NCBI GenBank assembly: GCA_015066845.1
Contig: SVNO01000012.1
Coordinates: 1 to 39,720 of the forward strand
Direction: 5' to 3'
Length of the DNA stretch: 39,720 bases
DNA from: Ruminococcus sp.
GTDB taxonomy: Bacteria > Bacillota > Clostridia > Oscillospirales > Ruminococcaceae
Positions 10,945-39,720 of this stretch are shown piece after piece; the stretch's first letter is position 1; every line of letters begins with the position of its first letter. The notes under the pieces were generated by a model. The model searched no databases, was not told the DNA's origin, and worked only from the letters and a program-made list of their open reading frames with translations. Position numbers and translations under genes: made by a program.

Positions 10945-11015
10945 GGGCAATACCGCACAAAGAACAGTGCATCTGCTTAAGATTCGCTGTAGATTTTTCG
11001 TCAGCGGTATTGCCC
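10945..11015. repeat. Dispersed hairpin element directly before enolase
   Basis: GGGCAATACCGC (10945-10956) pairs perfectly with GCGGTATTGCCC (11004-11015). The left arm and following bases recur at 21444-21472, where the element is split by a MITE-like insertion; short pieces (GCGGTATTG) recur near 10147, 31606 and 35650. The element ends 19 bases before the enolase ATG, so it is in the mRNA leader. Confidence 0.65.
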
Positions 11016-17295: not shown

Positions 17296-18714
17296 ATGGA
17301 CGATTTTTTCAATTTCAACACCAATCAGCCGCAGGACGCTGCGCCAGAAATCTCCATGCCGGAGATGCCGGATGTCATGGACGCGCCCGTGCAGCGCGAC
17401 ATGCCGGAAGAAACGGAAATCCCCGAAATTCCGGAGGAATCCGCAGAAATCGGCGGCGCATTCTACGGCGACCCCCACGCACCCGTACAGCCGCAGCCGA
17501 TACAGTACCAGTATGTTCCGATCGAACCACAGCCCATACCGGTGATGAACCGCCGCATTTACACGATGGCAGCCGTCATTGCCGCGCTGATTTTCCTGCT
17601 CTGTCTGTTCTGCATCGGTTCCGACCTGCTGCACGGTGTTCTGACGGATACACCGGTGGTGAAGGAGGTCATCATTTCCCAGCAGCCCAAACCGGAGCTG
17701 GATCCGGAGGATGAAAACGTTGCGCCGGACGGCACCTATACCGTGCGCGGCATTGCGGAGCTTGTCAAGCCCTCAATTGTGGAAATCTACACATTTTCGG
17801 ATGATTCTTTTTCCGACAAGGCATTGAGTGGTACAGGTTCGGGCGTGATCATCTCGGAGGACGGGTACATCATCACCAACGCGCATGTGGTAGATGGTGT
17901 GACGTTCATGGTCGTTCTGGAGGATGAGAGTGAGCATGAGGCGCAGCTCATCGGCAGTGACGCAAAAACCGACCTTGCCGTGCTCAAAATCGAGGCTGAA
18001 GAGCTTTCGGCGGCAGTACTGGGGGATTCGGATGAAGTCTATGTCGGTGAGAACGTCGTTGCCATCGGCAATCCTGCCGGACTGACGGGCACTGTAACGC
18101 AGGGCATCGTATCGGCAGTGGACAGACAGGTACGCGCGGAGAGCAATGCATTTGTCATGAGCTGCATTCAGACGGACGCAGCAATCAGTCCGGGCAATTC
18201 CGGCGGTGCATTGGTGAACATGTACGGGCAGGTCATTGGCATTACCTCCTCGAAATACGCAGCCAACTACATGACGGGCAATGCTTATGAGGGCTTGGGA
18301 TTTGCCATTACCATCAATCAGGCACTTCCGATCGTGGAAGATCTGATCGCACAGGGCTATGTATCCGGACGCTTCCGCATTGGCATCACGTTCCTTGAAA
18401 TTGGCACGGAAATGGGCGGATACGTCTACGAACAGGAAACCGGAAAGCCGCTGCCGGATGGTGTACAGGGACTTTGGGTGCAGGAAATCAGCGAGGACTG
18501 CGACATTTCCAATACCGAGCTTGCGCCGTATGATTTCATTATTTCAATGAACGGTGTGGATGTAGACAGTTATGACACTGTACTGGAAGTACTGGACGGT
18601 TTCGAGGGCGGTGACACGGTAACGGCAGAATGTGCAAGAATCGAGGAGGACGAGAGTATCACTTATTTTGAGATTTCGTTCCTGCTGGAGGAAGATACTT
18701 CTGGTAATTACTAA
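17296..18714 (+). CDS. htrA: Membrane-anchored HtrA/DegP-type serine protease with PDZ domain
   Basis: Surface protease that degrades misfolded exported proteins. 472 residues: acidic, Pro/Glu-rich cytoplasmic region (1-85), one membrane helix (about 88-108), trypsin-like domain with His 197 (TNAHVVDG), Asp 226 (KTDLAVLKI) and Ser 302 (SPGNSGGALVN), then one PDZ domain (about 375-465). The long N-terminal tail is typical of Gram-positive HtrA. ATG 17296 has GAAAGGA 8 bases upstream; the earlier ATG at 17245 is part of the preceding terminator hairpin. Position after a two-component system suggests induction by envelope stress. Confidence 0.95.
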   Translation: MDDFFNFNTNQPQDAAPEISMPEMPDVMDAPVQRDMPEETEIPEIPEESAEIGGAFYGDPHAPVQPQPIQYQYVPIEPQPIPVMNRRIYTMAAVIAALIFLLCLFCIGSDLLHGVLTDTPVVKEVIISQQPKPELDPEDENVAPDGTYTVRGIAELVKPSIVEIYTFSDDSFSDKALSGTGSGVIISEDGYIITNAHVVDGVTFMVVLEDESEHEAQLIGSDAKTDLAVLKIEAEELSAAVLGDSDEVYVGENVVAIGNPAGLTGTVTQGIVSAVDRQVRAESNAFVMSCIQTDAAISPGNSGGALVNMYGQVIGITSSKYAANYMTGNAYEGLGFAITINQALPIVEDLIAQGYVSGRFRIGITFLEIGTEMGGYVYEQETGKPLPDGVQGLWVQEISEDCDISNTELAPYDFIISMNGVDVDSYDTVLEVLDGFEGGDTVTAECARIEEDESITYFEISFLLEEDTSGNY

Positions 18715-18739
18715 GAAAACCACCGCACAAGACATAGAG

Positions 18740-18764
18740 CAGCTCCGCTTTGCAGCGGAGCTGT
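18740..18764. repeat. Left copy of a 25-base direct repeat flanking element A (hairpin)
   Basis: CAGCTCCGCTTTGCAGCGGAGC followed by TGT, identical to 18989-19013. It is itself a hairpin (GCTCCGCT-TTGC-AGCGGAGC) of the intrinsic-terminator type after htrA. Confidence 0.8.
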
Positions 18765-18988
18765 CAGCTTGTAGAAAAAGTCTTTTTCTGGGGTTGGCAC
18801 CCCTGTAACTGCCCCCACCCCAACCCCTCCCCCAAAGGGGGAGGGGCTATTTTTCGGGGACTTCGCTGTACAGCCCGTCCCCTCTGCTTCACTTTGTTCA
18901 GCATCTCCCCGCCCCGCGGGGAGTCACCCGAACCCCTTGTGCGGAGCTATCGCTCCGCGTTTGATTTTAGGTTTTTCGACAGACAGAC
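18765..18988 (+). mobile_element. MITE-like element, copy A (224 bp)
   Basis: Left end CAGCTTGTAGAAAAAGTC and right end GGTTTTTCGACAGACAGA form terminal inverted repeats around TGTCGAAAAA. Inside is a G/C-rich body with CCCCTCCCCCAAAGGGGGAG hairpin, a CGGGGAC segment and GCGGAGC-TATC-GCTCCGC. Copies B (21473) and C (24567) share both ends and most of the body. No coding capacity, so it would need a transposase in trans. Flanked by a perfect 25-base direct repeat. Confidence 0.7.
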
Positions 18989-19013
18989 AGCTCCGCTTTG
19001 CAGCGGAGCTGTT
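18989..19013. repeat. Right copy of the 25-base direct repeat; probable terminator
   Basis: Same hairpin as 18740-18764, followed on the plus strand by TGTGTTTTAT. It nearly touches the stop codon of the convergent cellulase gene. Confidence 0.75.
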
Positions 19014-19018
19014 GTGTT

Positions 19019-21343
19019 TTATACCGGGAAGTTCTTGACAAGTCCGATTGTGAATTTCAGGATGTTCAGTGCATCCGTTGTTGTCGGTTTCTTGTCAAGG
19101 TCAACGTCTGCATTGACCATGCCCTGTTCCGTAATAGGTGTACCTGCAAGCAGGTTCTGTGTCAGTACAAGCACATCCACGATGGTGACTTCACCGTCAC
19201 AGTTGACATCGCCATAGCCTACTTCCGGTTCATCCGGCTCTGCGGTAGTCGTGGGCGGTTCTGTGGTGGTCGGCTCGGTCGTGGACGGCTCTGTGGTAGT
19301 CGGCTCAGTCGGGGTAGGTGTTACAGGGGGCTTTGCACTTGCATTGCCATCCGCTGTAGTACCGTCCGGCTCTGTGCCGTAGTACAGCTCACCATCAATA
19401 TAAACCGGAATGTTCTTGGTCACGATGGTATCCGTGCTGTCAATGCCCAAAAGCTCCTCGTTGGAGAAGTCATTGGATGCATCCCAGCCCTTGCCGTAAT
19501 TCGGTACGATCAATGCCAGAAGCAGTTCGCACTGCTGTCTGCCCTCGGAAACCGGAAGTGCTGCACGACCGTCGGGATAAGTTACTTCTACATAGTATAC
19601 ATCGCCGTCATACTTCTGCGGCTTGGAAACAGTGGGAGTCGCTACGCCCTCGGATGCATACATTGCCGCCTGATCACGATCAACACGGATTTCTACCGCT
19701 GTCGGATCATAACCTGCTGCAGCCAGCTCGGAGAGGTCCATGTAATAACGGTAGGATACATTGTCCACAACTCTTGCCGGCCATGCGGTATGGTTGGTCA
19801 GCTTCAGGCTCAGCGTAACGCCGCCGTCCGTAAGATCCTTGAGCTGTGTTTCCACATAAATCTCAGGGCCGTCGTGCTGCTCAGGTTCGGGGAAATTCGG
19901 GTCGGTTTCGCCGCCGTATACGTCTACCATCTTGCACAGCAGTGCGGTCAGACCTGCATTGTAGTCGTCCGCTACCTCGTTGTTGATGTAGTTCTGACGG
20001 TCGTCCTCATAGCTGCCGTCCTCGTTCGGGCCGCCGGCAAGTGCACCGTACAGAATGTGGCGGTTGGTTTCCGGTACGGCAAGGTCGTTTTTCCAGCTGC
20101 CGTGTGCGGTTCTGTGGTGGGGATTCTTCGGGTAATTGTCGCCGAAGCCTACCATGTAGCTCATATTCAGCGGATTGTCGCCGAGTACATAGTCGATCTG
20201 TTCCTTGTAGTACTCCTCATAATCGGAAGTATCCTTGTCCTTGAGGATGGTATCGCTTGCAACTGCTGCAAGGAATCCGGCATTCAGCGGATAACGCAGA
20301 CAGCCCCATGTGGTATTCCAGCGCATACCGCCTTCCAGCTCCTTGACCTCGTATGTCCAGTAATCAAGGTGCTTTTTCACATGGTTGATATAGGTAGCGT
20401 CATTGGTATTGATGGCATAGAGCAGCATTGCGCCCTGCATGGTATCATCCCAGCAGTGTGACCATGTGTACTTGAGAATATCCTGTCCCAGCTCCTTGTC
20501 CAGATTCGGAATGTAGCTCGTTGCCTTGTCCAGATATGCCTTATCGCCGGTAGCGATGTACAGCCAGTTGGAAGAATAGAACAGCTCGTCATAGAAATGG
20601 CTGGAGCGATAGAAACCGGACGCGTTGCTGTCATTGTACACCGCATCACTTTTTGATGCGTCTGCAAGCTTGAAAATATTTTCCGCTGCGGCAAGGTAGC
20701 CCTCGCGCTTTGCATCATCCACTCTGCCGTCCAATGCACAATAGCCGGCTGCCAGTGCAGCTGCCATACCACCGAATACTGCGGAGCAGCCATCGGATGC
20801 CTTCAGGGATGCACGGGATGCAGCATAGGAATTACCCTGTTCTGCCATACCGTATTCATACATCTCAACGGGGCCCCACCATGTATGGTCAAGTGTACCG
20901 TTGCCGACCTGGAATACTACCTCGTCACCCTGGTCACAGGCTGCCAGATAATCCATGACAAATTCCAGATTATTGACATAGTTCTCCATCTCGCCGATTT
21001 TTTCCAGACCATCGGGATACTGATAGAGTCCCCAAGCCATCATGGACGCGGTGAATGCCATGGGCAGATTGAATTTCACATGGTCGCCGGCATCGTACCA
21101 ACCACCCTGGATCTCGTCAATCATGGTAGCATCGGCTTTCCATTCCACTCGGTTCCACTCCGGCAGCGGGCCTGCCTGCTGGCATTCATAGAAGAACAGA
21201 TCCATCTGGAGTGCTTCGGCGTAATTGGGATTCTCTGCTGCCTCGACCGTGTTGTTCTGTACTGCATCGGCAAAACCGGCTGCACCCAGAGAAGCGGCGA
21301 GCATCACAGCAGAAACGATCCCTCCTGTAATTTTCTTCAGCAT
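19019..21343 (-). CDS. Secreted GH9 endoglucanase with CBM3 and type I dockerin (cellulosomal)
   Basis: Cellulose-degrading enzyme of 774 residues. Signal peptide (1-28); GH9 catalytic domain (about 38-475) with GGWYDAGDHVKFNLP (nucleophilic-water Asp residues), NYPKNPHHRTAHGSW and NNEVADDYNAG (acid Glu near 456); CBM3, probably subtype c, about 488-640, which in this architecture makes the enzyme processive; a Pro/Thr/Glu linker about 670-705; and a dockerin (GDVNCDGEVTIVDVLVLTQN and ADVDLDKKPTTTDALNILKF) with two Ca-binding loops that bind a cohesin on a scaffoldin. ATG 21343 has AGAGGAG 7 bases upstream; ATG 21349 is too close to it. Monocistronic, with a cre/LacI-like operator. Confidence 0.96.
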   Translation of the reverse strand: MLKKITGGIVSAVMLAASLGAAGFADAVQNNTVEAAENPNYAEALQMDLFFYECQQAGPLPEWNRVEWKADATMIDEIQGGWYDAGDHVKFNLPMAFTASMMAWGLYQYPDGLEKIGEMENYVNNLEFVMDYLAACDQGDEVVFQVGNGTLDHTWWGPVEMYEYGMAEQGNSYAASRASLKASDGCSAVFGGMAAALAAGYCALDGRVDDAKREGYLAAAENIFKLADASKSDAVYNDSNASGFYRSSHFYDELFYSSNWLYIATGDKAYLDKATSYIPNLDKELGQDILKYTWSHCWDDTMQGAMLLYAINTNDATYINHVKKHLDYWTYEVKELEGGMRWNTTWGCLRYPLNAGFLAAVASDTILKDKDTSDYEEYYKEQIDYVLGDNPLNMSYMVGFGDNYPKNPHHRTAHGSWKNDLAVPETNRHILYGALAGGPNEDGSYEDDRQNYINNEVADDYNAGLTALLCKMVDVYGGETDPNFPEPEQHDGPEIYVETQLKDLTDGGVTLSLKLTNHTAWPARVVDNVSYRYYMDLSELAAAGYDPTAVEIRVDRDQAAMYASEGVATPTVSKPQKYDGDVYYVEVTYPDGRAALPVSEGRQQCELLLALIVPNYGKGWDASNDFSNEELLGIDSTDTIVTKNIPVYIDGELYYGTEPDGTTADGNASAKPPVTPTPTEPTTTEPSTTEPTTTEPPTTTAEPDEPEVGYGDVNCDGEVTIVDVLVLTQNLLAGTPITEQGMVNADVDLDKKPTTTDALNILKFTIGLVKNFPV

Positions 21344-21391
21344 AAACATACTCCTCTCATAATTGTACGGACAGATAATCGCAGACTCTGA

Positions 21392-21405
21392 CCGAAACGT
21401 TTACA
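21392..21405. promoter_or_regulatory. cre/LacI-family-like operator of the cellulase gene
   Basis: Minus strand TGTAAACGTTTCGG, matching the first eleven positions of the Firmicute cre pattern TGWAARCGYTWWCW and centred on the palindrome AAACGTTT, about 10 bases after the -10. Suggests carbon-source repression by CcpA or a LacI-type regulator. Confidence 0.5.
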
Positions 21406-21414
21406 GATACTTTC

Positions 21415-21443
21415 ATTATGCCATAATTTGTTCAAAAAGTCAA
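21415..21443 (-). promoter_or_regulatory. Promoter of the GH9 gene
   Basis: Minus strand TTGACT (21438-21443), 17 bases, CATAAT (21415-21420). Confidence 0.75.
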
Positions 21444-21472
21444 GGGCAATACCGCACAAAGAACAGTGCATC
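21444..21472. repeat. Left part of a dispersed hairpin element interrupted by copy B
   Basis: GGGCAATACCGCACAAAGAA then CAGTGCATC equals 10945-10973 next to enolase. The expected continuation (ATTTGCTG...TTTTTTCGTCAG) resumes at 21736 after the MITE-like insertion, as compared with ATTCGCTG...TTTTTCGTCAG at 10982-11003. Confidence 0.65.
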
Positions 21473-21725
21473 AGTTTGTCGAAAAAGTCTTTTTTCAGGG
21501 GTTAGCCCCCTGTAACTGCCCCCACTCTGTCAATGTCATCAACTTTAGGAAAGTTGTGCAAAGCTTGTCCCACCCCCTGCCCCCTCCCAAAGGGAGGGGG
21601 ATTATGGGAGGCGGCTGCGCCCCTTGGAATCCCGCTTAAGTTGATGACATTGCCCACTCCGTGAGGAGTCACCCGAACCCCTTTTGCGGAACTCCGCGTT
21701 TGATTTCAGGTTTTTCGACAGACTG
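21473..21725 (+). mobile_element. MITE-like element, copy B (253 bp), inserted in a hairpin repeat
   Basis: Ends AGTTTGTCGAAAAAGTC and GGTTTTTCGACAGACTG. Exactly flanked by the 9-base direct repeat CAGTGCATC (21464-21472 and 21726-21734), as expected for a target-site duplication. Inside, CAATGTCATCAACTT (21531-21545) and AAGTTGATGACATTG (21638-21652) form a perfect 15-base inverted repeat absent from copies A and C, suggesting a nested rearrangement. Confidence 0.75.
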
Positions 21726-21766
21726 CAGTGCATCCGATTTGCTGCGTTTTTTCGTCAGGTTGAACA

Positions 21767-21813
21767 AAAATTCCGCAGGCATCCTATCGTATAGCAAGGA
21801 ATTTTTGGGCAGG
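21767..21813 (-). terminator. Possible terminator after the DUF896 gene
   Basis: AAAAATTCC and GGAATTTTT are inverted copies about 27 bases apart; on the minus strand the second arm ends in TTTTTG. Weak because the stem is A/T-rich. Confidence 0.4.
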
Positions 21814-21843
21814 ATGACGAGGGCAATCCGGCAAAGATGATGT

Positions 21844-22038
21844 TCATTTCAGCTTCCGCTTGTTTCCCTGCTCGTCCATGATATAGGTATTGTCAAGCTG
21901 CGCACGGAGATTACGCAGAAAACCGGCGCGGTATTCTTCGCGCAGCTGTGCCTGTTCCGCACGTTCTGTCTCCGTCAGTCCCTCCGCTTTCGCTTTTTTC
22001 GCCAGTGCATTGATGCGGTCCAGCTTTTGCTGTTCCAT
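21844..22038 (-). CDS. DUF896 (YnzC-like) small protein
   Basis: A 64-residue cytoplasmic protein with the DUF896 signature: MEQQKLDRINALAKKAKAEG, LTETERAEQAQLREEYRAGF and the basic C-terminus DEQGNKRKLK. The Bacillus homologue YnzC is encoded next to the SOS gene yneA (sosA operon), but no such neighbour is here, and the molecular function is not established. ATG 22038 has GAGG 8 bases upstream; a GTG three codons earlier is within the SD. A complete, normal-looking gene with ordinary codon use, transcribed divergently from an sRNA candidate. Confidence 0.92.
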   Translation of the reverse strand: MEQQKLDRINALAKKAKAEGLTETERAEQAQLREEYRAGFLRNLRAQLDNTYIMDEQGNKRKLK

Positions 22039-22063
22039 GGGATTCACCTCATTTCTTTTACCA

Positions 22064-22100
22064 ACCCCAGAAAAAAGACTTTTTTCTGCAAGCTGTGAAA
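22064..22100 (-). repeat. Fragment of the MITE-like family left end
   Basis: Minus strand CAGCTTGCAGAAAAAAGTCT then TTTTTCTGGGGTTGG, close to the first ~35 bases of copies A-C. Only one end is present, so it is a decayed copy. Confidence 0.5.
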
Positions 22101-22127
22101 TTCAAGAATTCTTAAAGGTTAGTGTGC

Positions 22128-22133
22128 TATAAT
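22128..22133 (+). promoter_or_regulatory. Extended -10 promoter of sRNA-2
   Basis: TGC-TATAAT, an extended -10, with no good -35 at 17 bases. Confidence 0.6.
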
Positions 22134-22139
22134 AAAGTT

Positions 22140-22244
22140 GGTTAAGGTGATACATTTACATGGTATTTCCTTAGTAATCCCCCCTAAAATTCCCCCTTAT
22201 TTTATCTCTCTTTGCGGTGCCTGCATTTGGGCACCATTTTTTTT
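22140..22244 (+). ncRNA. Candidate small RNA (family 'GGTGATAC', copy 2)
   Basis: About 105 nt. The 5' hairpin GGTGATAC-N9-GTATTTCC repeats that of sRNA-1 (10697) with one mispair. It is followed by an unstructured pyrimidine-rich stretch with CCCCCC and CCCCC runs (22169-22197), then terminator GGTGCC-TGCATTTG-GGCACC-ATTTTTTTT (22216-22244). C-runs of this sort pair with Shine-Dalgarno sequences in known Gram-positive sRNAs. No ORF with an SD. Confidence 0.6.
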
Positions 22245-22267
22245 GGAATATCGGGGGGGATTACTTG

Positions 22268-22984
22268 TTATCTGCCGCCAAGACGCACTACAGTCTGCAA
22301 TGCAAGCTCCATCATTGCGGTGAAGCCTGTCTGCCGTTCCTGTGCGGTGGTGAATTTTCCGTCAAGCGGGCAGTCGGACACGGTACAGATGCACAGTGCT
22401 TCTTTACCGGCACGGGCTGCGTTCAAATAGAGTCCGGCAGATTCCATCTCGATGCCGAGAACATTCATTTTTCTCCATTCTGCGAGAGAATTTGCGTCAT
22501 CATAGAACGTGTCCGAGGACAGGAGATTGCCCACGCGCACGGACATTTGCAAGGTCTGTGCAGTTTCTGCCGCCGCAGAAAGCAGGCGGTAGGAGGCAAT
22601 GGGGGCATAGGTGCCGGGGAGCTTGTACTGTGCAGCAAAATTGGAATTGGTGCAGGCTGCCTGACCGAGAATCACATCACGCAGTTCTACTTCCGGCGCG
22701 ACAGCACCTGCCGTACCGATGCGGATAATTGCCTGCACGTCAAATTCATGGTACAGCTCGTAGGAATAGATCCCGATGGACGGGATGCCCATACCGCTGC
22801 CCTGTACGGAAACGGGGATGCCGTGGTAAGTGCCGGTATAGCCGAGCATTCCGCGGATCTCGTTGACGCAGGTGGGATTTTCGAGATAGGTTTCGGCGAT
22901 GAATTTCGCGCGCAGCGGATCGCCGGGCATGAGGACAATGGGGGCATAATCGCCCTTGCTGCCTTGAAGATGGGGAGTGGACAT
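22268..22984 (-). CDS. deoD: Purine nucleoside phosphorylase, DeoD type
   Basis: Phosphorolysis of purine (deoxy)nucleosides to base and ribose-1-phosphate in salvage. 238 residues, the standard length of hexameric DeoD. Visible: VLMPGDPLRAKFIAETYLEN (phosphate loop), SVQGSGMGIPSIGIYSYELY, RIGTAGAVAP, and NVLGIEMESAGLYLNA, whose Glu-Met-Glu binds ribose, plus a TVSDCPLDGKFTTAQERQTG segment with the purine-site Asp. SD GGAGG is 7 bases before ATG 22984. It starts 24 bases after the flippase stop, so the two may be cotranscribed without an obvious functional link. Confidence 0.95.
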   Translation of the reverse strand: MSTPHLQGSKGDYAPIVLMPGDPLRAKFIAETYLENPTCVNEIRGMLGYTGTYHGIPVSVQGSGMGIPSIGIYSYELYHEFDVQAIIRIGTAGAVAPEVELRDVILGQAACTNSNFAAQYKLPGTYAPIASYRLLSAAAETAQTLQMSVRVGNLLSSDTFYDDANSLAEWRKMNVLGIEMESAGLYLNAARAGKEALCICTVSDCPLDGKFTTAQERQTGFTAMMELALQTVVRLGGR

Positions 22985-23008
22985 GGGATGACCTCCTTTT
23001 TGGTTGTA

Positions 23009-24436
23009 TTATCCTCTCTTGAGCACTTTCTTCACCGTCTGCAAAATCGCCTGAAAATTGAACACGCACATGAACAGGAGCAGGACGATCTGGAACGGAA
23101 TGATAAAGGACGGCTCAAGGATCGCGGCAAAGCTCATGGCAAACAGAATCACGAGATTCAATGCAAAACGCATATGATGCACCTTGAACGGGATCAGCTT
23201 TCTGGTATCCACAATACGGATGAGGTAGCAGATAAAATAGCTGGCAAAGGTAGCAATCACTGCGCCATGCACACCGAAATGGTAAATCAGAATCGTATTG
23301 AGCACCAGATTTGCCGCCGCTGCCGCCAGACTTGACCAGAAGCTATGTGTGGTTTTCTGGGTGGCTGTGTAGATGCTGCTGAGGAACTGGTTGAAGCTCA
23401 TCAGGAGCACGGCAATAATCAGTACGGGGGTGTACTGGTAGGCACGGGCATATTCCGGATAGACGCTGTAATCAATGAGAATTGCGGACAGGGGCTTGAC
23501 CAGTGCGATCATAAACGCTGCCGCAAGGAACATCAGGGACTGGTACGCGGAGAAAATGCGGTAGTAGAAATTGCTCCTGTCCTTGCTGTTATTTTCAGTA
23601 ATGGCGGACATATTCCACGCCTGAAAGAAAATTGTGGACACCATGGAAATGAGGTTGGGCACTTTGGAGGATGCCTCATAAACGCCGGCTGCGGTTTCAC
23701 CCACATCGGCACTGACGGCAAAGCCGTCCATGTAGCGGACAAAGAGTCTGTCCGAAAAGCCGGTGACGATCCACAGCACGGTGGTAGGAATCATGGGGAT
23801 GGAAAAGCGCAGCATGAGCTTGGTAATTTCATTGTTGTACATGCGCACGTTGAAGAATTTCCAGAGCTTTGCAGTAATCCAGAGGAACACACCGGAGAGG
23901 AAGTCCGAGAGGATGACCGAGAGCATGAAGCCCATGACACCGAGCTGCATGACGGACACAAACAGGACATTGAAGCAAAAGAGTGTTAATGTGGCAATGA
24001 TGCCGTCAAGGGCAAAGAGCCTTACCATACCGCGCGCGCGGACGAACTGGGAGCTGAGCTGGCGGAATGACGAGGCGATAATGTAAATCATCAGATAGAG
24101 CACATAGCCGTTTGCATAGGGCAATAGGGTGAGCATTGGGGAGATGAGGAGCAAGCCGAGCATTCCGGCGGCTTCCGTCAGGCAGGCGGAGGTAAAAATT
24201 TCCGTTTTGTCAAATTCCCTGTCCAGACCATAGCGGATAACGGCTTCAGCGATGGAGAGGGTAACGATGGGAATGATGAAATTCGCCGTATTTTCGAGCA
24301 AAGCCTTGGTGCCATATTCCGCAGAGGGGATATTATGGGTATAGAGCTTATTGAGCAGGAGCAGGAGAATTTTCGAGCCGAATGAACCGATTGCAAAGAC
24401 CAGCGTGTTCATGGCGAGCTGTTTATATTTGTTCAA
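23009..24436 (-). CDS. Polysaccharide biosynthesis flippase (Wzx/MVF-like)
   Basis: 475 residues with about fourteen membrane helices. The N-terminus NTLVFAIGSFGSKILLLLLN and the segment SAEYGTKALLENTANFIIPI are typical of Wzx/RfbX-type exporters, which flip undecaprenyl-linked oligosaccharides. No ATG has an SD; TTG 24436 lies 7 bases after GGAAGG and gives MNKYKQLAMNTLV, so it is chosen over the upstream frame. It may work with the sugar transferase at 6607 and the Wzy-like protein at 1363, though they are far apart. A promoter (TTCCAT-N17-TATAAT) lies upstream. Confidence 0.9.
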   Translation of the reverse strand: MNKYKQLAMNTLVFAIGSFGSKILLLLLNKLYTHNIPSAEYGTKALLENTANFIIPIVTLSIAEAVIRYGLDREFDKTEIFTSACLTEAAGMLGLLLISPMLTLLPYANGYVLYLMIYIIASSFRQLSSQFVRARGMVRLFALDGIIATLTLFCFNVLFVSVMQLGVMGFMLSVILSDFLSGVFLWITAKLWKFFNVRMYNNEITKLMLRFSIPMIPTTVLWIVTGFSDRLFVRYMDGFAVSADVGETAAGVYEASSKVPNLISMVSTIFFQAWNMSAITENNSKDRSNFYYRIFSAYQSLMFLAAAFMIALVKPLSAILIDYSVYPEYARAYQYTPVLIIAVLLMSFNQFLSSIYTATQKTTHSFWSSLAAAAANLVLNTILIYHFGVHGAVIATFASYFICYLIRIVDTRKLIPFKVHHMRFALNLVILFAMSFAAILEPSFIIPFQIVLLLFMCVFNFQAILQTVKKVLKRG

Positions 24437-24499
24437 AGTGAATCCTTCCTTACTGGTGTAATACGTCAGGGCATCCTGTAAAAGATGCTGTACTTTCTT

Positions 24500-24528
24500 A
24501 TTATACCACATTCTGTGAAAAAATGGAA
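24500..24528 (-). promoter_or_regulatory. Promoter of the flippase gene
   Basis: Minus strand TTCCAT (24523-24528), 17 bases, TATAAT (24500-24505). Confidence 0.6.
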
Positions 24529-24566
24529 TACTTTTTGAAAAAATTACAGGCAACACATTATTGTCT

Positions 24567-24733
24567 CGGTCTGTCGAAAAACCTAAAATCAAACGCGGAG
24601 CGATAGCTCCGCAAAAAAGGGGGGGAGGGGACGAAGTCCCCGAAAAATAGCCCCTCCCCCTTTGGGGGAGGGGTTGGGGTGGGGGCAGCCTTGGGGTGCT
24701 AACCCCAGAAATAAGACTTTTTCGACAAGCTGA
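24567..24733 (-). mobile_element. MITE-like element, copy C (167 bp, reverse orientation)
   Basis: On the minus strand it runs from TCAGCTTGTCGAAAAAGTCT to GGTTTTTCGACAGACCG, matching copies A and B at both ends, with the CCCCTCCCCCAAAGGGGGAG hairpin and GCGGAGC-TATC-GCTCCGC. Shorter than A because part of the middle is missing. Flanked by GGCAACACATTATTGTCT (24549-24566) and GGCAATACATTATTGCCT (24734-24751), an 18-base direct repeat with two differences; the right copy is a hairpin at the stop codon of the next gene. Confidence 0.7.
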
Positions 24734-24749
24734 GGCAATACATTATTGC

Positions 24750-25331
24750 CTACACGATCACACGAAACAGTCCGTGACGGTTACAGAATGCATAAAGCAC
24801 ACCGCGTTTGCGTTTCTGAATACGGCAGGCGGCATTCTGTTCGGGGTAGAGCTTGACAAATTCCGTGCGGTCGGCATGGACATAGCAGAAAAAGGAAATG
24901 TAGTGTGATTTCTCCATGGAATGCTCCATGGTAATATAGTAATCACCGTCACTTTCCTCGATATGGATGCAATGCGCCTCGTCCGCATCTTCCGGTTCAA
25001 GGGGCGGCAAAGCAACACCGCAGCAGGAAAATGCACCTGCACCGACGGATTGAATGACATTGCCGCAGACGGGGCAGACATAGAACTGCATTTTCCGGAT
25101 ATTGGAAGAACGGTTGGCATTGACGGCGCATTCTCCTGTGAGAAGCTCCGGCACGGACACGCCCAGTGCGGCGGCAAGGTCCATGAGAATGGAAATATCA
25201 GGCAGTCCTCTGCCGGTTTCCCATTTGGAGATGGTTTTGTCACTGACATTGAGCCGCTGTGCAAGCTGTTTCTGTGTGAGGGCTTTCTGTTCACGGAGGG
25301 TACGGATGGTTTCAGCGGTGATATACTGCAT
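24750..25331 (-). CDS. HTH regulator fused to a desulfoferrodoxin (superoxide-reductase-like) module
   Basis: 193 residues. Residues 5-65 are an XRE HTH (TLREQKALTQKQLAQRLNVS, KTISKWETGRGLPD). Residues 83-110 are a desulforedoxin-like Fe-Cys4 site: FYVCPVCGN with C86 and C89, and FSCCG with C103 and C104. Residues 117-190 resemble the Fe-His4-Cys centre of superoxide reductase: H120, H137 and H143 (EHSMEKSHYISF), C183 and H186 (CNRHGLF). Spacing of the last four ligands is as in the family. The Lys that precedes the first His in the enzyme is Ala here (EAH). A redox or superoxide sensor is inferred. ATG 25331 has AAAGGAG 7 bases upstream. Confidence 0.88.
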   Translation of the reverse strand: MQYITAETIRTLREQKALTQKQLAQRLNVSDKTISKWETGRGLPDISILMDLAAALGVSVPELLTGECAVNANRSSNIRKMQFYVCPVCGNVIQSVGAGAFSCCGVALPPLEPEDADEAHCIHIEESDGDYYITMEHSMEKSHYISFFCYVHADRTEFVKLYPEQNAACRIQKRKRGVLYAFCNRHGLFRVIV

Positions 25332-39502: not shown

Positions 39503-39505
39503 CCA

Positions 39506-39720
39506 GCTTGTCAAAAAACTATCCTCTTATGCCGGAGGCAATGGAAAAGTTTTTGGTCGAGCTTTTTTCAAAAAGCTCGTGGGTGTCCAGAGGGCAACGC
39601 CCTCTGGTCGCGCACCGCAGTGCGCGAAATCTCTTTAAGCCGTCGCTTTTTTCAGGGGTGAATCAAAAAAATAGTCCTGTGGACTGTTTTTTTGAGAGGG
39701 GGACTTTTTTGCAAAAAAGT
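39506..39720. repeat. Hairpin-rich dispersed repeat, cut by the window edge
   Basis: Begins CTTGTCAAAAAACTATCC, like the ends of the MITE-like family, then a chain of hairpins: CGAGCTTTTTTCAAAAAGCTCG-type (39578 region, arms CGAGCTTTTT/AAAAAGCTCG), CCAGAGGGC-AAC-GCCCTCTGG, GCGCACC-GCA-GTGCGC-like, and AGTCC-TGT-GGACT. No gene. It may be a different repeat that shares the end sequence. Confidence 0.5.

What the first reader, a model, noticed from the sequence alone, without database searches (positions are those of the whole stretch)
18740..24751. MITE-like family (A, B, C) with TGTCGAAAAA terminal inverted repeats, inserted in palindromes with direct-repeat flanks
Seen: three elements (18765-18988, 21473-21725, 24567-24733 reversed) share both ends and most of a G/C-rich body, and have inverted ends around TGTCGAAAAA. 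Each is flanked by direct repeats: 25 bases exact (A), CAGTGCATC exact (B), 18 bases with two differences (C). The flanks of A and C are themselves hairpins, and B splits a hairpin repeat whose uninterrupted form stands before enolase. Inference: a non-autonomous mobile element that targets hairpins or terminators, or excises and inserts with duplication of the hairpin. Duplications of such different lengths are odd for one transposase.
Basis: partly seen in the sequence, partly recalled or inferred. Interest (0 to 1): 0.78.

Follow-up and report, generated by a model that had tools for sequence, protein, structure and literature searches.

The report
Jumping DNA that duplicates terminator hairpins
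Short mobile DNA elements in this bacterium, relatives of the IS1182 family, insert at hairpins near the ends of genes and leave a copy of the whole hairpin on each side, so the length of the duplicated target appears to be set by the shape of the target rather than by the enzyme.

Summary
Confirmed and largely explained. A, B and C belong to a MITE superfamily with roughly 116 copies in this 2.2-Mb draft genome. Borders are CAG…CTG. In 35 of 46 two-border copies examined the flanking direct repeat is a complete stem-loop of locus-specific sequence (repeats 19-34 bp). Full-length elements with the same ends, encoding IS1182-family transposases (4 of 4 tested), occur in relatives and leave the same footprint: 39 hairpin repeats in 73 loci examined. 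In one complete genome near-identical copies give repeats of 20-35 bp. Two relatives hold the empty site of one such IS: same flanks, one 39-bp hairpin. Of 101 repeats, 79 are centred exactly on the palindrome axis. So one transposase can give different duplication lengths because the folded target sets them; the cruciform step is inferred. IS1182 elements were known to target palindromes; published IS1272 removes the hairpin, and whole-hairpin duplication was drawn as a hypothetical branch (PMC5678879). Against: B has only an 8-bp repeat and no whole hairpin; no IS1182 transposase was found in the window's own genome; no exact empty site was found for A, B or C.

The parts
18740..18764 (.). 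A, left copy of the duplicated target hairpin (25 bp)
   Evidence: identical to 18988-19012; hairpin, 0 of 200 shuffles as good
18765..18986 (+). MITE copy A (222 bp, CAG...CAG; right end mutated from CTG)
   Evidence: ends and body shared with other copies
18988..19012 (.). A, right copy of the duplicated target hairpin; lies in a terminator-like match at 18986-19013
21464..21471 (.). B, left direct repeat CAGTGCAT (8 bp, not a hairpin by itself)
21472..21725 (+). MITE copy B (254 bp)
21726..21733 (.). B, right direct repeat CAGTGCAT
24548..24566 (.). C, left copy of the duplicated hairpin (19 bp, 2 differences, folds weakly)
24567..24732 (-). MITE copy C (166 bp), the common type of about 163 bp
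24733..24751 (.). C, right copy of the duplicated hairpin (19 bp)
39504..39720 (+). Fourth copy D, same ends but another interior; cut by the contig end
   Evidence: end match at 39503 with 2 mismatches, sequence, interior as in L063 and L079
22061..22095 (+). Probable remnant of a single MITE end
   Evidence: 3-mismatch end match at 22081 and the sequence itself; not followed up

Best explanation
These are MITEs: short non-coding elements that keep the ends of an IS1182-family insertion sequence and are moved in trans by its DDE transposase. SHOWN: borders CAG...CTG; high copy number; locus-specific whole-hairpin duplications; IS1182 elements with the same ends in relatives that leave the same footprint; two empty sites of one such IS with a single hairpin. 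INFERRED: that the IS1182 enzyme moves the MITEs, and that it acts on a folded target. A terminator palindrome extrudes as a cruciform (or is exposed as a single-strand hairpin), which brings the two feet of the stem together although they lie 19-39 bp apart in linear DNA. Each transposon 3' end joins the 5' foot of the hairpin on one strand; repair of the two single-stranded hairpins gives one whole hairpin on each side. Duplication length then equals hairpin length. Landing just beyond gene ends and keeping a whole copy of the terminator may make insertion nearly harmless, which could explain the high copy number.
For: 35 hairpin repeats in 46 two-border copies of this genome, 23 in 31 of congeners, 39 in 73 IS loci. 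Strict hairpin test 93 of 101 repeats against 133 of 9927 flank windows of the same lengths. Repeat centred on the palindrome axis exactly in 79 of 101, within one base in 88; shuffled mean 30%, largest of 10,000 47%. IS1182 transposases with the same ends, 357-397 bits against a cut-off of 270, 4 of 4 tested. Empty sites in G339 and G242 with exactly one 39-bp hairpin. Eight Chakrabartyella piscis copies with repeats of 20-35 bp and near-identical transposases. 47 of 51 copies have a facing reading-frame 3' end within 150 nt (no background control).
Against: 10 of 46 copies in this genome have no such repeat: B (8 bp), three with a different hairpin on each side and five with a hairpin on one side only (by eye), one probably not an element. 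No IS1182 transposase in G000 or in several MITE-rich congeners. No exact empty site for a MITE: A only by position, and the site of C in G013 lacks the hairpin. Repeat length follows the full extended stem only moderately (r = 0.44). Cruciform and 5'-foot attack are not tested by sequence.
Confidence: 0.87

Rival explanations
1. Stem-loop replacement as published for IS1272: the element replaces the target hairpin without duplication, and the flanking hairpins are other terminators or arrived with the element.
For: Same transposase family; IS1272 and TnSha1 remove the hairpin (PMC5678879, PMC4923244). Copies with a different hairpin on each side exist.
Against: Empty sites hold one hairpin, the filled site two identical ones. 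The repeats differ from locus to locus, 36 distinct sequences in 36, so they did not arrive with the element.
Confidence: 0.03
2. An ordinary transposase cuts with its own stagger near terminators, and the match between repeat and hairpin is a by-product of terminators being common targets.
For: Copies lie near gene ends. A few insertions have short repeats without a hairpin: B 8 bp, L260 8 bp, L150 5 bp.
Against: Repeat lengths spread over 19-39 bp, also within one genome with near-identical transposases, and repeats are centred on the palindrome axis.
Confidence: 0.05
3. The MITEs of this genome are moved by an enzyme other than IS1182 that happens to share ends and target choice.
For: No IS1182 gene in G000, and PF01609 is absent from several MITE-rich congeners (G007, G008, G010, G016, G018).
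Against: Ends, CAG border and hairpin footprint agree with IS1182 elements of the same genus (L186/L273) and family. Other transposase families were not searched, so this is not excluded; the draft is 93% complete and breaks at repeats.
Confidence: 0.07

Closest known systems
IS1272 / TnSha1 (IS1182 family, staphylococci; PMC5678879, PMC4923244)
   Same: Family of the transposase; hairpins, often terminators, as targets without sequence consensus; inverted ends of about 16 bp
   Different: There the hairpin is removed or partly deleted and no duplication is reported; here a whole copy is left on each side. PMC5678879 draws whole-stem-loop duplication as pathway b of its model
IS1182 members with short repeats: ISCfr1 and a Sinorhizobium copy; ISMac2 and its MITEs, ISPse1, ISCaa15 (passages of PMC3852290, PMC3281130, PMC3196728)
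   Same: Family; ISMac2 also has MITEs
   Different: Repeats of 0-6 bp, no whole-hairpin duplication seen
Other hairpin- or terminator-seeking elements: group IIC introns, IS110-type elements at REP sequences (recalled, from no call)
   Same: Prefer hairpins or palindromes
   Different: As recalled, no inverted ends with whole-hairpin duplication; different enzymes

Membership tests
IS1182 family (autonomous partners) | Transposase above the curated NF033551 cut-off | tested here: met
   4 of 4: 389, 397, 394 and 357 bits against 270
IS1182 family (autonomous partners) | Terminal inverted repeats bordering the gene | tested here: met
   L170, L180, L173, L186; survey
IS1182 family (autonomous partners) | Direct repeats within the published 2-60 bp range (PMC7335449, passage) | tested here: met
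   19-39 bp in 40 of 73 loci
MITE of IS1182 | Short, multi-copy, without a transposase gene, inverted ends at fixed borders | tested here: met
   46 two-border copies listed, 119-360 bp; about 116 estimated
MITE of IS1182 | Ends like those of an autonomous partner | tested here: met
   shared end pattern in congeneric and family elements
MITE of IS1182 | Partner present in the same genome | tested here: not met
   0 matches in G000; 11 of 38 genomes of the genus search have one
MITE of IS1182 | Mobilised by the partner | not testable with these tools
   needs an experiment
IS1272-type stem-loop replacement | Target hairpin lost, no duplication | tested here: not met
   one hairpin in the empty site, two in the filled site
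Known RNA family | Rfam match over the gathering score | tested here: not met
   0 matches in window 18600-24900

The most novel reading that the evidence does not exclude
A broad clade of IS1182 transposases (found from Ruminococcus-like bacteria to Streptococcus, Enterococcus and Providencia) acts on a folded target, a four-way junction made by an extruded terminator palindrome, and duplicates whatever hairpin is extruded. Duplication length is then a readout of target structure, its MITEs have colonised on the order of a hundred gene ends in one genome, and insertions would mark where palindromes are extruded in living cells.
Probability: 0.6. Interest if true: 0.8.

Novelty: new variant of a known kind. 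Interest (0 to 1): 0.62.

Why it matters
DDE transposases are usually known by a nearly fixed duplication length, because the enzyme sets the distance between its two cuts (general knowledge). Here the distance follows the target's own fold over 19-39 bp. This gives a large natural data set for a pathway that PMC5678879 drew as a possibility, may explain the wide direct-repeat range listed for IS1182, shows how a transposon can use gene ends as landing sites while leaving a whole terminator copy, and offers a testable in-vivo reporter of cruciform or hairpin formation.

Tried and rejected
The MITE had no match in the phage collection and one short, probably chance match in plasmids. An apparent 1.5-kb element on contig C47 was one complete MITE copy plus a separate single end. 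Candidate long elements in G007, G008 and G013 had ordinary reading frames or tandem MITE-like units between ends. PF01609 across the genus at first spoke against a DDE enzyme, since several MITE-rich congeners lack it; the family-wide end search then led to the autonomous ISs. No exact empty site of A, B or C was obtained: A is comparable only by position at the protease terminator, and the site of C in G013 lacks the hairpin. B as 'loop duplication' (pathway c of PMC5678879) was considered; the predicted fold of the joined B site gave no convincing hairpin with the repeat as its loop. The gene-end statistic has no background control. The first hairpin test was lenient (flank windows passed in 63 of 360, 43 of 250 and 53 of 400); the strict test replaced it for the comparison with background. 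My notebook says ten Chakrabartyella copies; recounting one search gives nine.
Full report
WHERE. The window is contig C69 of a 2.21-Mb draft genome of 106 contigs. The congener G024 has a contig of 14,659 bases, the length of the contig of the record 'uncultured Ruminococcus sp. RUG12829' (L273) that carries the same IS, so the window is probably from a Ruminococcus-like genus. This naming is an inference.

THE OBSERVATION. The end pattern TTTTTCGACARNCTGA has 40 + 33 exact sites in the genome and 0 in the reversed control, and 123 + 124 against 7 + 8 at up to two mismatches; half the excess is about 116 copies, truncated ones included. A number of contigs begin within about 150 bases of an end, that is, inside a copy. 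A fourth copy in the window starts at 39504 and is cut by the contig end.

BORDERS. In copies whose end reads CTGC, CTGT or CTGG in place of CTGA (L080, L060, L059, L061), the base after CTG equals the base at the matching place of the other flank. It therefore belongs to the duplication, and the element runs from CAG to CTG.

DUPLICATIONS. In the stretches fetched from the genome (not the whole genome) I listed pairs of ends 90-420 bp apart without regard to flank similarity, leaving out copies with less than 25 nt of flank and duplicates: 46 copies. Repeats touching the borders (within 4 nt) were found in 36; 35 of these fold as single stem-loops with at most 3 unpaired bases at either end; all 36 differ in sequence, and they are 19-34 bp long. 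In stretches from congeners: 31 copies, 25 repeats, 23 hairpins. The ten misses in the genome, judged by eye: three with a different hairpin on each side (L003, L005, L093), five with a hairpin on one side (L040, L062, L070, L099, L115), B with 8 bp, and L064, probably not an element. Different hairpins on the two sides may come from recombination between copies or from draft assembly; this was not tested.

THE PARTNER. PF01609 has no match in G000 and none in G007, G008, G010, G016 and G018, which carry the elements. A search of 396 genomes of the family for the ends found exact matches in 101 genomes and 52 of 126 genera; the reversed control hit 13 genomes by my count, once each, so some of the single hits are chance. 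Some hits bracket a gene: L170, L180, L173 and L186 hold elements of about 1.5 kb with such ends, whose proteins match NCBI's IS1182 transposase model at 357-397 bits against a cut-off of 270. L170, L180 and L186 are flanked by duplicated hairpins, L173 by two different ones. No such gene was found in G000; 11 of the 38 genomes of the genus search have a match.

SURVEY. A scan of the species-genome collection with the four-protein alignment found 279 relatives and kept the best 80. For 73 of 80 some inverted end pair could be proposed (7 none), in a number of cases clearly wrongly, as loci are truncated or ends diverged. 40 of 73 have a border-touching repeat, and 39 of these are hairpins; 19-39 bp. 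The border search included the repeat in its score, so the share with repeats is favoured by the method; their being hairpins is not. Nine more loci (L219, L221, L222, L224, L227, L277, L279, L281, L291) show, by eye, a different hairpin on each side. Chakrabartyella piscis has nine loci in one complete chromosome: eight have hairpin repeats of 20-35 bp, and the ninth, L250, has one with a small deletion (by eye, not counted in the 39). Five of its transposases are identical in the tree alignment and the other four nearly so. An Enterococcus faecium and a Providencia IS1182 also have hairpin repeats (22 and 19 bp), whereas ISCfr1 and a Sinorhizobium member have 6 and 5 bp, and a copy annotated ISEfa7 gave no clear result. 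In a tree of 51 transposases (frames under 380 aa left out) the two short-repeat members stand apart from the other 49, but on very long branches whose place is unsure.

EMPTY SITES. The Gemmiger sp. An194 IS (L218) is 1562 bp between two copies of a 39-bp hairpin. In G339 and in G242 the two flanks align next to each other with an overlap of exactly 39 bases, so there is one hairpin and no element. The aligned joints are intact, apart from small differences such as one more A before the hairpin in G339. At the terminator of the protease gene next to A, G008 and G016 have, by eye, a single hairpin, while G000 and G013 have hairpin-MITE-hairpin with different hairpin sequences, apparently separate insertions at the orthologous terminator. 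The site of C in G013 has neither element nor hairpin.

SHAPE OF THE TARGET. Of the 101 pooled repeats, 93 pass a strict hairpin test, against 133 of 9927 windows of the same lengths in the outer flanks. The repeat is centred on the palindrome axis exactly in 79 of 101 and within one base in 88; shuffling gives 30% on average and 47% at most for the latter. The stem often continues outside the repeat, mostly in A/T-rich sequence, so the cuts lie symmetrically in the foot of the stem; in 64 of 86 exact-border repeats the left end, and in 72 of 86 the right end, lies one to three bases outside the first G or C. The correlation of repeat length with the full extended stem-loop length is only moderate (0.44), which I ascribe to these extensions. 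47 of 51 copies with enough flank have a reading-frame 3' end facing them within 150 nt (no background computed).

MECHANISM. Shown: whole-hairpin duplication at symmetric positions. Inferred: attack at the 5' feet of both hairpins of a cruciform, pathway b of the model in PMC5678879 (I saw the abstract, passages, section 23 and part 1 of 2 of the Discussion). The published IS1272 instead loses the hairpin (PMC5678879; PMC4923244, passages). A four-way junction would bring both cut sites together whatever the hairpin length, giving one enzyme geometry and many duplication lengths. Single-strand exposure during replication or transcription would also do.

THE MITES THEMSELVES. The commonest type is about 163 bp: 19 of the 46 copies measure 162-166 bp, with mean pairwise identity 89% (73-98%), and its majority sequence folds into several stem-loops. 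A and C both carry a stem-loop followed by a T-rich tail that a simple scan calls terminator-like. At least one other interior has similar ends (L063, L079, D). Why these interiors are made of hairpins is open.

NOVELTY. Searches of the open library brought up palindrome targeting by IS1182 members, the wide repeat range (PMC7335449, passage), short repeats of other members (PMC3852290, PMC3281130, PMC3196728, passages) and the pathway drawn in PMC5678879. In the listings, abstract starts and passages I saw there was no report that the repeat is the whole hairpin, nor of such MITEs; a MITE review (PMC10969869) does not contain the term IS1182. Most subscription papers and ISfinder itself could not be searched, so prior notice there is possible.

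Noticed in passing
window 39504-39720: A fourth MITE copy with another interior, preceded by a hairpin and cut by the contig end.
   Followed up: partly
window 22061-22095: A probable remnant of a single MITE end without a partner.
   Followed up: no
window 10945-10962 and 21444-21461: A separate repeat, GGGCAATACCGCACAAAG, occurs twice (0.04 expected); B interrupts one copy. Similar strings stand near other MITE copies.
   Followed up: partly
L003, L005, L093; L219, L221, L222, L224, L227, L277, L279, L281, L291: Elements with a different hairpin on each side, perhaps products of recombination between copies, or assembly joins.
   Followed up: no
L148 (G007:C32): Tandem MITE-like units separated by nearly the same hairpin.
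   Followed up: no
L327 and L328 (empty sites in G339 and G242): The loop of the 39-bp hairpin is in opposite orientation in the two relatives, as if the loop had inverted.
   Followed up: no
L150 5124-5285 (G013:C6) and L260: Insertions without a whole-hairpin repeat, with short repeats of 5 and 8 bp.
   Followed up: no
contig starts of G000, e.g. C19, C36, C56, C70, C74: Contigs begin inside MITE copies, so these repeats probably limit the assembly.
   Followed up: no
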